Positions 22,834 through 28,585 of a stretch of 64,000 nt of DNA are shown one piece after another. The stretch spans positions 25,443,411 to 25,507,410 of the forward strand of contig OY754981.1 of NCBI GenBank assembly GCA_963576475.1, written 5' to 3'. The position numbers and the translations under genes were made by a program. How positions within the stretch are numbered: the stretch's first letter is position 1; every line of letters begins with the position of its first letter. A model generated the notes under the pieces. The model ran no database searches and had not been told where the DNA came from. It saw nothing but the letters and a program-made list of their open reading frames with translations. This DNA comes from Molanna angustata (lineage: Eukaryota; Arthropoda; Insecta; Trichoptera; Molannidae).

Positions 22834-23728
22834 GCCTCTGCAATCCAAGTAGCACCGGTTTACAGCTACTATTCTAGTAAGGGGGCGAGATTTCATGTGC
22901 CTCTGCAATCCAAAGTAGCACCGGTTTACAGCTACTATTCTAGTAAGGGGGCGAGATATCATGTGCCTCTGCAATCCAAAGTAGCACCGGTTTACAGCTA
23001 CTATTCTAGTAAGGGGGCGAGATTTCATGTGCCTCTGCAATCCAAAGTAGCACCGGTTTACAGCTACTATTCTAGTAAGCGGGCGAGATTTCAGGTGCCT
23101 CTGCAATCCAAGTAGCACCGGTTTACAGCTACTATTCTAGTAAGGGGGCGAGATTTCATGTGCCTCTGCAATCCAAAGTAGCACCGGTTTACAGCTACTA
23201 TTCTAGTAAGCGGGCGAGATTTCAGGTGCCTCTGCAATCCAAGTAGCACCGGTTTACAGCTACTATTCTAGTAAGGGGGCGAGATATCATGTGCCTCTGC
23301 AATCCAAAGTAGCACCGGTTTACAGCTACTATTCTAGTAAGGGGGCGAGATATCATGTGCCTCTGCAATCCAAAGTAGCACCGGTTTACAGCTACTATTC
23401 TAGTAAGCGGGCGAGATTTCAGGTGCCTCTGCAATCCAAGTAGCACCGGTTTACAGCTACTATTCTAGTAAGGGGGCGAGATTTCATGTGCCTCTGCAAT
23501 CCAAAGTAGCACCGGTTTACAGCTACTATTCTAGTAAGGGGGCGAGATATCATGTGCCTCTGCAATCCAAAGTAGCACCGGTTTACAGCTACTATTCTAG
23601 TAAGCGGGCGAGATTTCATGTGCCTCTGCAATCCAAAGTAGCACCGGTTTACAGCTACTATTCTAGTAAGCGGGCGAGATTTCAGGTGCCTCTGCAATCC
23701 AAGTAGCACCGGTTTACAGCAACTATTC
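22834..23728 (-). repeat. RTE-derived minisatellite, about 14 units of 65/66 bp
   Basis: The starter GCCTCTGCAATCC occurs 14 times. Read on the minus strand, a 66-bp unit encodes 22 residues with NRCYFGLQRHMKSRPLTR and IVAV. The RTE ORF has NRCYFGL...K.R.L.RKTK just before YKTLIRPVL, as the intact junction at 28540-28620 shows, so the unit was copied from the element's own coding sequence. Five units lack one A (65 bp) and shift the frame. These shorter units, marked CAGGTGCC and AAGTAGC, are spaced by 3, 1, 2 and 3 full units. Confidence 0.88.
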
Positions 23729-23865
23729 TTTGAACAAATCGCAAAGTACTAAAAATGTAATAATTCAACGCATCAAAATCAGTGAAGAAAATTGTAGACA
23801 AATTTTAAAGAAAATTGTAGAGATAATAAAGTATCTCTGTCAAAAACTCAATTTCATACACAACG
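23729..23865 (+). other. Unique segment of the inverted arm
   Basis: Links the array to the SINE. The open frame at 23730-23927 (and 27137-27334 in the other arm) gives a lysine- and isoleucine-rich peptide without a known domain. Confidence 0.4.
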
Positions 23866-24060
23866 TCCCGGGTTCGACTATCAGCGGAGACATAGATTTT
23901 AATAGTGTTATCAGTTTGGATCTGTAAGACGTATCACAAGTCTCCAGATTGTGGATACTTGTTATTGGGTGCGTGATAAATTAATATTTTCCCGAGAAGT
24001 AAAACAGTTTCTTGTCACATTATACGACCAAATGAATTTAAATAAAAAAAGATTTTGACT
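23866..24060 (+). mobile_element. tRNA-derived SINE, family 3 (left arm copy)
   Basis: Has the B-box-like CCCGGGTTCGACTATCAGCG, then AGTTTGGATCTGTAAGACG and GTGGATACTTGTTATTGGGT, as in the copies at 42478-42655, 44955-45660 and 53325-54030. The 5' part of the tRNA head is poorly kept. The inverted copy is at 27004-27198. Confidence 0.65.
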
Positions 24061-24088
24061 CAAGAGTTGCGCACAAAGATTTAATGTC

Positions 24089-24568
24089 GTGTATGTATGT
24101 ATAAACGGTTTAATGTACTATTCACTTTACCAATCAATAGTAGAATATAGTATTATAGGGTGGGGTGGCACTTACAGAACAAATATAGATTCAATAGTTA
24201 AAGCCCAAAAATCTGTTTTGAAAATAATATTTAATGTACCTATTCGCACACCCTCAGCCGAACTATTCAAAAAACTTGACATCCTAGACATACCACAGTT
24301 ATATGCTAAAAACATTTGCACTTATATCTATTCACACCTTAACGACTTCCAATCGACCCAAACTACACGTCAGACTAGACAGATTAGACAAGCAAATATA
24401 CAGATACCGAGAACCAAGTCGACTTATGGACAAAGAAATTTTCATTTCCTTGGAGTAAAAATTTTCAATTTGCTTCCAATTGAATTGAAGAAAACTACAA
24501 ATATAAACAGCTTTAAATGTGGATTAAAGAAGTGGGTAAAAGAAAACAGACAAGACACTGATAAATAA
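24089..24568 (+). pseudogene. LINE reverse transcriptase C-terminal region (CR1/Jockey-like)
   Basis: A 159-residue open frame entered from upstream (it begins at a GTG, not an ATG) and ending at a stop near 24568. LYQSIVEYSIIGWGG, then QKSVLKIIFNVP, and near the end KIFNLLPIELKK..NINSFK, follow the order of the region after the polymerase fingers and palm in CR1/Jockey/Daphne-type LINE ORFs. Endonuclease and catalytic polymerase blocks are absent. The first ~100 bp are repeated in inverted form at 26876-26975, where the sequence switches abruptly to a PLE. It lies directly before an RTE 5' end on the same strand. Confidence 0.72.
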
Positions 24569-26125: not shown

Positions 26126-26875
26126 GTTATATTTGATGTTTTCACGGGTGAAATATGTTATAATATTTTTATCTCGGTTTTCCCGTGTCAGTAGGTCTTG
26201 ACTAAGACCATTTGTCTTCCGACGTTTCGCCTGAATATCACCAGGCATTTTCAAGGACTTAACGAAAAGCACGCGCGCGACACACGTCTACTCACACTGA
26301 AAGCTCACCGTCAAGTGACTCGTAGCGTACAAGATGGCCGCTTATGTCAAATATTGTTAGCGCGACGTGATTGGCTCCTTGTGACACGCCCACCTGCTGT
26401 CGTGTTCGTTGGTAATAATATTTTATCATTATTTTTGTGTTGTGATTTATTGTTAATTTTAGTTGTGACATTAATATTATTATTGTTGTGTTTTGGGGTT
26501 ATTTTCGCTATGGTATTATTAATATTATTATTGTATTGTTTGTCATATAAAATGTTCTTCCAGGTACTAGGCAAACGAACTCCGTCGTCCCGATTGTTCA
26601 TTATATCCCTTCTCTTATATATTTCTATAGCTTCCCTGTAAATTCTGAGAGGTTCACTGTTTAAACTTGCTATTATTTTTGAATGGTCAAAATCTATTGT
26701 ATGTCCTTCTGTGAGCGAGTGTTGTACAAGTGAGGATGTAAGTTTTTTGTTTCTCATGTCGACTCTGTGCTCCGCTATTCGTGCTTCAACTTTTCGATTG
26801 GTTCTTCCTACATAAGTCTTATTGCACGATCCGCACGGTATTTCATATACTCCATGAGCATCATTCCACTTGAAG
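26126..26875 (-). mobile_element. Penelope-like element, 5'-truncated
   Basis: On the minus strand: a GIY-YIG ORF, a ~40-bp gap, then the ~185-bp terminus that recurs at 22051-22196 and 22210-22386, ending against (TA)n. The reverse transcriptase part is missing. The 5' edge (26875/26876) coincides with the end of the inverted arm, so the truncation point and the rearrangement breakpoint are the same. Confidence 0.8.
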
Positions 26876-26904
26876 CTATATTTGTTCTGTAAGTGCCACC
26901 CCAC
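26347..26904 (-). CDS. GIY-YIG endonuclease domain of a Penelope-like element
   Basis: A 185-residue frame. GVYEI (18-22) and TYVGRT (30-35) are the GIY and YIG strands. CGSC (24-27), between them, is the Cys pair typical of PLE endonucleases. R42..EH46, then SLVQHSLTEGH (58-68) with the His of the PLE zinc-like motif, then YREAIEIYKR (89-98) with the presumed catalytic Glu 91 or nearby, then NNRDDGVRL and W. The tail is rich in Asn/Lys and ends RRANNI. In PLEs this domain sits C-terminal to the polymerase and cuts target DNA. The polymerase is lost here. Residues 1-9 are not PLE: they come from the LINE fragment of the inverted arm, and the frame opens at GTG. The domain looks intact; expression is doubtful. 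Confidence 0.85.
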   Translation of the reverse strand: MGWHLQNKYSFKWNDAHGVYEIPCGSCNKTYVGRTNRKVEARIAEHRVDMRNKKLTSSLVQHSLTEGHTIDFDHSKIIASLNSEPLRIYREAIEIYKRRDIMNNRDDGVRLPSTWKNILYDKQYNNNINNTIAKITPKHNNNNINVTTKINNKSQHKNNDKILLPTNTTAGGRVTRSQSRRANNI

Positions 26905-28230
26905 CCTATAATACTATATTCTACTATTGATTGGTAAAGTGAATAGTACATTAAACCGTTTATACATACATACACGACATTAAATCTTTGTGCGCAACTC
27001 TTGAGTCAAAATCTTTTTTTATTTAAATTCATTTGGTCGTATAATGTGACAAGAAACTGTTTTACTTCTCGGGAAAATATTAATTTATCACGCACCCAAT
27101 AACAAGTATCCACAATCTGGAGACTTGTGATACGTCTTACAGATCCAAACTGATAACACTATTAAAATCTATGTCTCCGCTGATAGTCGAACCCGGGACG
27201 TTGTGTATGAAATTGAGTTTTTGACAGAGATACTTTATTATCTCTACAATTTTCTTTAAAATTTGTCTACAATTTTCTTCAATGATTTTGATGCGTTGAA
27301 TTATTACATTTTTAGTACTTTGCGATTTGTTCAAAGAATAGTTGCTGTAAACCGGTGCTACTTGGATTGCAGAGGCACCTGAAATCTCGCCCGCTTACTA
27401 GAATAGTAGCTGTAAACCGGTGCTACTTTGGATTGCAGAGGCACATGAAATCTCGCCCGCTTACTAGAATAGTAGCTGTAAACCGGTGCTACTTTGGATT
27501 GCAGAGGCACATGATATCTCGCCCCCTTACTAGAATAGTAGCTGTAAACCGGTGCTACTTTGGATTGCAGAGGCACATGAAATCTCGCCCCCTTACTAGA
27601 ATAGTAGCTGTAAACCGGTGCTACTTGGATTGCAGAGGCACCTGAAATCTCGCCCGCTTACTAGAATAGTAGCTGTAAACCGGTGCTACTTTGGATTGCA
27701 GAGGCACATGATATCTCGCCCCCTTACTAGAATAGTAGCTGTAAACCGGTGCTACTTTGGATTGCAGAGGCACATGATATCTCGCCCCCTTACTAGAATA
27801 GTAGCTGTAAACCGGTGCTACTTGGATTGCAGAGGCACCTGAAATCTCGCCCGCTTACTAGAATAGTAGCTGTAAACCGGTGCTACTTTGGATTGCAGAG
27901 GCACATGAAATCTCGCCCCCTTACTAGAATAGTAGCTGTAAACCGGTGCTACTTGGATTGCAGAGGCACCTGAAATCTCGCCCGCTTACTAGAATAGTAG
28001 CTGTAAACCGGTGCTACTTTGGATTGCAGAGGCACATGAAATCTCGCCCCCTTACTAGAATAGTAGCTGTAAACCGGTGCTACTTTGGATTGCAGAGGCA
28101 CATGATATCTCGCCCCCTTACTAGAATAGTAGCTGTAAACCGGTGCTACTTTGGATTGCAGAGGCACATGAAATCTCGCCCCCTTACTAGAATAGTAGCT
28201 GTAAACCGGTGCTACTTGGATTGCAGAGGC
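26876..28230. repeat. Right arm of the 1355-bp inverted repeat
   Basis: Mirror of 22834-24188. Includes LINE 26876-26975 (minus), SINE family 3 at 27004-27198 (minus) and most of the array. The array continues for about 350 bp past the arm end into genuine RTE C-terminal sequence, so this side is probably the parent and the left side the copy. Confidence 0.9.
27004..27198 (-). mobile_element. tRNA-derived SINE, family 3 (right arm copy)
   Basis: Inverted copy of 23866-24060. Confidence 0.65.
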
Positions 28231-28585
28231 ACCTGAAATCTCGCCCGCTTACTAGAATAGTAGCTGTAAACCGGTGCTACTTTGGATTGCAGAGGCACAT
28301 GAAATCTCGCCCCCTTACTAGAATAGTAGCTGTAAACCGGTGCTACTTTGGATTGCAGAGGCACATGAAATCTCGCCCCCTTACTAGAATAGTAGCTGTA
28401 AACCGGTGCTACTTTGATTGCAGAGGCACCTGAAATCTCGCCCGCTTACTAGAATAGTAGCTGTAAACCGGTGCTACTTTGGATTGCAGAGGCACATGAA
28501 ATCTCGCCCCCTTACTAGAATAGTAGCTGCAAGCCGGTGCTACTTTGGATCGCTGAAGCACATGAAATCTCACCCCCTTACTAGA
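27357..28585 (+). repeat. RTE-derived minisatellite, about 19 units of 65/66 bp
   Basis: CTACTTTGGATTGCAGAGGC (or with one T fewer) begins each unit; I count 19. The last two units diverge (GCAAGCCGG, TCGCTGAAGCAC) and lead in frame into the RTE C-terminus, placing the ancestral unit at this end. The frame through a 66-bp unit is open; the 65-bp units break it. Confidence 0.88.

What the first reader, a model, noticed from the sequence alone, without database searches (positions are those of the whole stretch)
22834..28585. Minisatellite born from the coding sequence of an RTE retrotransposon
Both arrays consist of 65/66-bp units. The 66-bp unit is exactly 22 codons and encodes NRCYFGLQRHMKSRPLTR plus IVAV. 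The same residues occur once, in frame, just before KTKVMSYKTLIRPV in the RTE C-terminus at 28540-28620. So a piece of a retrotransposon ORF has become a tandem repeat (about 14 and 19 units). Divergence of the last two units next to the RTE tail points to the origin. Origin of satellites from transposons is known; one that preserves the codon phase of an RTE polymerase C-terminus is worth a look.
Basis: partly seen in the sequence, partly recalled or inferred. Interest (0 to 1): 0.75.

Follow-up and report, generated by a model that had tools for sequence, protein, structure and literature searches.

The report
Tandem repeat made from retrotransposon gene
A 66-base piece of the gene of an RTE jumping element, probably in an insect, was repeated about 19 times in a row and most of that run was later copied backwards nearby; it is a clear example of a known way in which repeats are born, not a new kind of system.

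Summary
Array B (27335-28586, +) has 19 units: 13 of 66 bp, 6 of 65 bp. Array A (22833-23729, -) has 13.7. The 66-bp unit matches, ungapped and in one frame only, a 22-residue segment present once in each of the two long RTE-type proteins found, just before KTK...YKTLIRPV. The unit is RTE coding sequence.

Three corrections. (1) The arrays are not two expansions. A is an exact inverted copy of the first 13.7 units of B (0 of 897 differences), inside a 1362-bp inverted repeat with 2 mismatches that also holds non-RTE flank: one array was duplicated, or the assembly folded back. (2) The array does not keep a reading frame: six of 19 units carry a 1-bp deletion and stops occur in all three frames. 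The multiple of three is inherited, perhaps through slippage between two in-frame AGA codons. (3) Only the last unit is strongly divergent.

Satellites from LINE ORFs are published (CR1 ORF2, L1 ORF2). Another, weakly RTE-like piece of the window carries a 44-bp tandem, not a multiple of three. The genome search did not complete, so spread is untested. Verdict: real, ordinary, a new member of a known kind.

The parts
27335..28586 (+). Array B: 19 head-to-tail units (13 x 66 bp, 6 x 65 bp), RTE sense strand
   Evidence: TRF; unit map
28520..28585 (+). Unit 19, the divergent edge unit, in frame with the RTE C-terminal tail; six substitutions from the majority, all at second codon positions
   Evidence: with the tail it aligns to P0122 residues 658-711
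28587..29023 (+). Degenerate RTE C-terminal coding sequence downstream of array B (with stops and gaps)
   Evidence: tblastn of P0122 (28517-28966, E 2e-13) and P0123 (28517-29023, E 2e-12) against the window alone
22833..23729 (-). Array A: exact inverted copy of units 1 to 13.7 of array B
   Evidence: 0 mismatches in 897 bp
22833..24194 (-). Left arm of a 1362-bp inverted repeat (array A, flank d, 95 bp of a fragment read here as jockey-type)
   Evidence: 2 mismatches in 1362
26870..28231 (+). Right arm of the inverted repeat
22544..22836 (-). RTE reverse-transcriptase N-terminal fragment joined in mid-unit to array A; two pieces in different frames
   Evidence: tblastn of P0122 312-364 and 375-413, of P0111 271-331; junction sequence
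24853..25915 (+). RTE 5' coding part with endonuclease domain, one in-frame stop near 25165, followed by (AT)n
   Evidence: PF14529 E 1e-12; 541 homologues with E up to 0.001 among 781 candidates; tblastn
23730..24100 (.). Flank d, DNA without RTE match shared by both arms, containing a dispersed repeat with diverged pieces elsewhere in the window (42506, 45010, 53363, 53930)
   Evidence: blastn
24059..24568 (+). Open frame read as the C-terminus of a jockey-type non-LTR element (assignment recalled; no Pfam match)
25916..26870 (-). (AT)105 followed by a fragment read as a Penelope-like element, with weak GIY-YIG similarity (family name recalled)
   Evidence: TRF; PF01541 E 0.0018, 19 bits, below the curated cut-off of 22.6

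Best explanation
The arrays are a transposon-derived minisatellite. Shown: the 66-bp unit corresponds to the piece of an RTE-type ORF that encodes the 22 residues before the conserved KTK...YKTLIRP motif; it stands in 19 tandem copies that end in frame in the RTE tail; and a 1.36-kb segment with 13.7 of the units plus non-RTE flank exists in an inverted copy 2.7 kb away. Inferred: a first tandem duplication between two in-frame AGA(A) tracts 66 bp apart in a dead RTE copy; growth and homogenisation by slippage or unequal exchange, giving interleaved unit types; then a recent DNA-level inverted duplication, perhaps by template switching. I take it to be neutral debris of a dead element, without a function of its own.
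For: Match in one frame, at one place, in both long RTE-type proteins found, far above shuffles. Basic residues bound the segment in the relatives (R657 and K679 in P0122, R841 and K863 in P0123), and both edges of array B read AGAA (27335-27338 and 28583-28586). The RTE tail follows array B, and RTE endonuclease and RT pieces lie nearby. Units 1-18 vary at only six columns while edge unit 19 has six changes of its own. Array A equals B at 897 of 897 bases and the inverted arms share non-RTE flank.
Against: No intact copy of this RTE from the same genome was seen; the genome search did not complete. The two relatives were found with a query that contained the segment, and an earlier search with the short tail found none. 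On its 5' side the array borders flank d, not the RT domain, so the RTE copy is truncated or rearranged there, and no shared word of 8 bp or more that could be a target-site duplication was found in the stretches compared. The AGAA micro-homology is only 4 bp. Unit 19 is not clearly more RTE-like than the others: counted by hand, 14 against 13 of 22 residues match P0122.
Confidence: 0.85

Rival explanations
1. Assembly artefact: the inverted copy (array A with its flank) is a fold-back or chimeric join, and only array B is real. This would leave the origin of the unit as stated.
For: Arms differ at 2 of 1362 positions, one of them 6 bases from the inner end; all 897 array bases are identical; array A breaks off in mid-unit against an RT fragment.
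Against: The arms end in different sequence on both sides, and one mismatch lies well inside them at 23782/27282.
Confidence: 0.25
2. A mobile minisatellite: a living RTE subfamily carries the tandem 22-residue repeat and spreads it, and this is one 5'-truncated insertion.
For: The array abuts an RTE C-terminus and starts at the codon before the unit boundary after non-RTE flank, as a 5'-truncated insertion might. A 186-codon stretch without stop on the minus strand (22576-23136) runs through about four units of array A into the RT fragment.
Against: Six of 19 units shift the frame and the longest stop-free runs in array B are 58, 80 and 102 codons, so no long ORF passes through this copy; the segment is single in both long relatives; no shared word of 8 bp or more at the ends compared. 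The genome could not be searched.
Confidence: 0.07
3. A coding repeat under selection for codon phase.
For: 13 of 19 units are exactly 22 codons.
Against: 39, 27 and 29 stops in the three frames of array B; variants on all three codon positions; all six changes in unit 19 are at second positions.
Confidence: 0.02
4. A foldback-type transposon, with long terminal inverted repeats built of tandem sub-repeats (type recalled).
For: 1362-bp arms containing tandem repeats, 2675 bp apart.
Against: Arm B ends inside the array (in unit 14 of 19) and arm A ends against an RTE fragment, so the outer ends are not matched termini; the spacer holds pieces of other elements.
Confidence: 0.03

Closest known systems
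Satellites that include LINE open reading frames: chicken HinfI (3' UTR and part of ORF2 of CR1), Phodopus PROsat (L1 ORF2), Phoca Pvc20 (L1 ORF2), as listed in the review PMC9659126 (passages and table rows seen; the original papers were not seen)
   Same: Tandem unit taken from the coding part of a non-LTR retrotransposon
   Different: RTE-type element instead of CR1 or L1; a small local array here, genome-wide spread unknown; unit length a multiple of three. The word RTE has 0 occurrences in the main text of that review
Human minisatellites from transposons: at least 7,276 tandem repeats or 23% of minisatellites/satellites, PMC3389668 (abstract and passages seen)
   Same: Tandem repeats derived from transposons and expanded by local duplication; a model with short direct repeats at the ends is quoted there
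   Different: The flanking repeat here is 4 bp, less than the 5-10 bp of the model quoted there
44-bp tandem in another fragment of this window (43845-43946)
   Same: Tandem repeat in a piece weakly similar to the RTE C-terminus (VKMSRLRWAGNVQRI against VKVQRLRWAGHLARM, E 0.029)
   Different: 2.3 copies; 44 bp is not a multiple of three

Membership tests
Transposon-derived minisatellite | Head-to-tail array of 10-100 bp units | tested here: met
   66-bp period, 13.7 and 19.1 copies
Transposon-derived minisatellite | Unit homologous to a transposon sequence, single copy there | tested here: met
   One in-frame match in each of the two long RTE-type proteins found; both came from a search whose query held the segment
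Transposon-derived minisatellite | Array embedded in or next to a copy of that transposon | tested here: met
   RTE tail follows in frame, matches over 28517-29023
Transposon-derived minisatellite | Same unit in other loci of the genome | not testable with these tools
   The genome search unanswered 8 of 8 times; an exact 20-base pattern was found 0 times in the viral and the prokaryote collections, which do not hold this genome as far as I can tell
RTE-clade non-LTR retrotransposon (source element) | AP-type endonuclease domain | tested here: met
   PF14529 E 1e-12, 48.4 bits, cut-off 27.4; 541 homologues among 781 candidates, several labelled craniofacial development protein 2-like. That this label marks RTE/BovB-type proteins is recalled
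RTE-clade non-LTR retrotransposon (source element) | Clade placement by a reverse-transcriptase tree | not tested
   Only an N-terminal part of the RT domain was found here; the RTE assignment of P0122 and P0123 is recalled, not computed
Coding tandem repeat under selection | Open frame through the array | tested here: not met
   39, 27 and 29 stops in three frames of array B; longest stop-free runs 58, 80 and 102 codons; 6 of 19 units of 65 bp
Foldback element | Inverted arms with matching outer termini | tested here: not met
   Arm B ends inside the array, arm A against an RTE fragment

The most novel reading that the evidence does not exclude
The tandem repeat grew in a living RTE lineage, between two in-frame arginine codons, so that early repeats stayed translatable and the element carried a growing 22-residue repeat in its C-terminus through the genome until frameshifts killed it: a retrotransposon acting as nursery and vehicle of a minisatellite.
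Probability: 0.07. Interest if true: 0.45.

Novelty: new member of a known kind. Interest (0 to 1): 0.2.

Why it matters
It is a readable snapshot of satellite birth: source element, edge unit, homogenised core and a later inverted duplication are all visible in 6 kb. As array A repeats units 1 to 13.7 of B in the same order without a change, both copies have been stable since the duplication, if the assembly is right. As far as the papers seen go, it adds RTE to the LINE clades whose ORFs have seeded tandem repeats, but it does not change the general picture.

Tried and rejected
Codon-phase selection: rejected by frameshifts and stops. Foldback element: rejected because the outer ends do not match. 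Two independent arrays: rejected because A equals B over 897 of 897 bases and non-RTE flank is shared. Target-site duplication for a 5'-truncated insertion: comparing 27301-27345 with 29051-29300, the longest shared word was 7 bp, taken as chance. Ribozyme or other RNA family in 21600-29200: the 9 Rfam matches up to E 1 lie in the palindrome or the (AT)n tracts, are all microRNA models below their gathering scores, and none lies in the arrays. Pfam matches of a three-unit array peptide: 6 weak ones, all below cut-off, taken as chance. Relatives in viral contigs and genome contigs: none confirmed. First protein search with the 79-residue tail: none. Paper searches on the origin of such repeats: 7 of 7 listed; 20 of 31; 15 of 132; 15 of 44; 1 of 1; 0 found; one on Penelope insertion sites, (8 of 27). 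No title or abstract start in these listings names a satellite from an RTE ORF. Only listings were seen, plus passages of PMC9659126, PMC6947457 and PMC3389668; the one paper was not opened.
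Full report
What is there. TRF finds arrays of period 66 at 22833-23729 (13.7 copies) and 27335-28586 (19.1 copies). Cut by a common anchor, array B has 19 units, 13 of 66 bp and 6 of 65 bp, in seven types. The six 65-bp units share a lost T, ATG to CTG, and CCC to CCG; the last change is also in unit 2, which is 66 bp. The order of types in B is a b c d e c c e d e d c d e d d f d g, an interleaving expected from repeated duplication of blocks of several units; TRF also reports periods of 197 and 263.

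One array, not two. A 1362-bp inverted repeat joins 22833-24194 with 26870-28231. It has two mismatches, one of them 6 bases from the inner end. Array A is the inverted copy of the first 897 bp of array B, with 0 mismatches. The arms also share flank d and 95 bp of a fragment that I read as jockey-type (recalled; no Pfam match). The second array therefore looks like a copy made at the DNA level, not a second retrotransposition or expansion. At the inner end an open frame continues through the end of arm A (24059-24568), while arm B meets the Penelope-like fragment. At the outer end array B continues into unit 19 and the RTE tail, while array A breaks off in mid-unit against an RT fragment. Each arm thus keeps one natural-looking end. 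I cannot derive the full order of events, and an assembly fold-back is not excluded.

Origin of the unit. A first protein search with the 79-residue tail found nothing. A search with the last two units and tail, allowing longer proteins, found 2 proteins with E up to 0.01 among 18 candidates: P0122 (833 aa, E 3.9e-8) and P0123 (1017 aa, E 1.7e-5), both from metagenome sources without an organism name; both carry the Pfam reverse-transcriptase domain PF00078, and P0123 an endonuclease match (PF03372) as well. Compared directly, within a set of 122 proteins, the edge unit plus tail aligns to P0122 658-711 at 59% identity (E 3e-15) and to P0123 842-894 at 49% (E 9e-13). The commonest unit alone, scanned ungapped in six frames, scores 76 and 62 in one frame at residues 658 and 842. 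The next-best places score 10 and 11, the other frames at most 17, and the best of 1000 shuffles 34 and 35. The segment is single in both. That they hold it at all is partly a result of how they were found. Other RTE pieces in the window: endonuclease at 24853-25915, RT N-terminus at 22544-22836 on the minus strand, C-terminus at 28517-29023, and further relatives at 34800-35134 and 47358-47871. Of the 120 listed endonuclease homologues (541 in all), 39 carry an organism name by my count, 29 of these insects; the rest are echinoderms, cnidarians, nematodes, a brachiopod, a crustacean and a mollusc. The best identities are 49-57%, so the host itself is not among them; it is probably an insect (inference).

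Codon phase. The unit is 22 codons because it is bounded by codons of one frame. In the relatives the residue before the segment and its last residue are basic (R657 and K679; R841 and K863); here both edges of array B read AGAA. Slippage between these tracts would give a multiple of three with no selection (inference; 4 bp is short). If unit lengths were random, one in three would be a multiple of three. Phase is not kept: six of 19 units are 65 bp, and array B has 39, 27 and 29 stops in three frames, with longest stop-free runs of 58, 80 and 102 codons. Against this, a 186-codon stop-free stretch on the minus strand (22576-23136) runs through about four units of array A into the RT fragment; I take it as chance in a run of 66-bp units that ends at a 65-bp type. 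The variable columns of units 1-18 fall on codon positions 1, 2 and 3 as 2, 1 and 3; one of these is the deletion, whose place in the T run is arbitrary. All six differences of unit 19 lie on second codon positions, which I cannot explain; by simple arithmetic, six changes on any one position have odds of about 1 in 240. As an internal comparison, another fragment at 43845-43946 carries a 44-bp tandem of 2.3 copies, but its similarity to the RTE C-terminus is weak (E 0.029).

What is known. A 2022 review lists satellites that include ORF2 of CR1 and of L1, and other coding parts of transposons (PMC9659126, passages and table rows). A 2012 study derives 23% of human minisatellites/satellites from transposons and quotes a model of initiation at short flanking repeats of 5-10 bp (PMC3389668, abstract and passages). 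A 2019 review treats conversion of transposons to tandem repeats (PMC6947457, passages). The word RTE has 0 occurrences in the main texts of the two reviews, and six searches on the origin of such repeats listed no RTE case by title or abstract start. This is weak evidence of novelty, limited to open-licence papers, to the terms used and to capped listings.

Limits. The window's genome could not be searched: 8 of 8 genome-search runs did not complete. The viral and prokaryote collections gave no confirmed relative, as expected for an animal retrotransposon. The raw-read and small-RNA tests could not be run.

Noticed in passing
22051-22386: Palindrome made of two head-to-head copies of the end of the Penelope-like fragment (matches of 177 and 164 bp, 100%), bracketed by (AT) tracts of 207 and 80 copies; the larger fragment at 26126-26870 also borders (AT)105.
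   Followed up: partly
43845-43946: 44-bp tandem (2.3 copies) in a fragment weakly similar to the RTE C-terminus.
   Followed up: partly
28520-28585: All six differences between the edge unit and the majority unit are at second codon positions.
   Followed up: no
12825-13972; 19744-19966; 43016-43200: Other tandem arrays with units of 318, 72 and 31 bp.
   Followed up: no
15686-16373 and 55895-56413: Two similar stretches with overlapping open frames on both strands, probably a dispersed repeat.
   Followed up: no
29116-29262: Imperfect inverted repeat of about 150 bp just after the RTE tail (78% match to its own reverse), like a small hairpin transposon.
   Followed up: no
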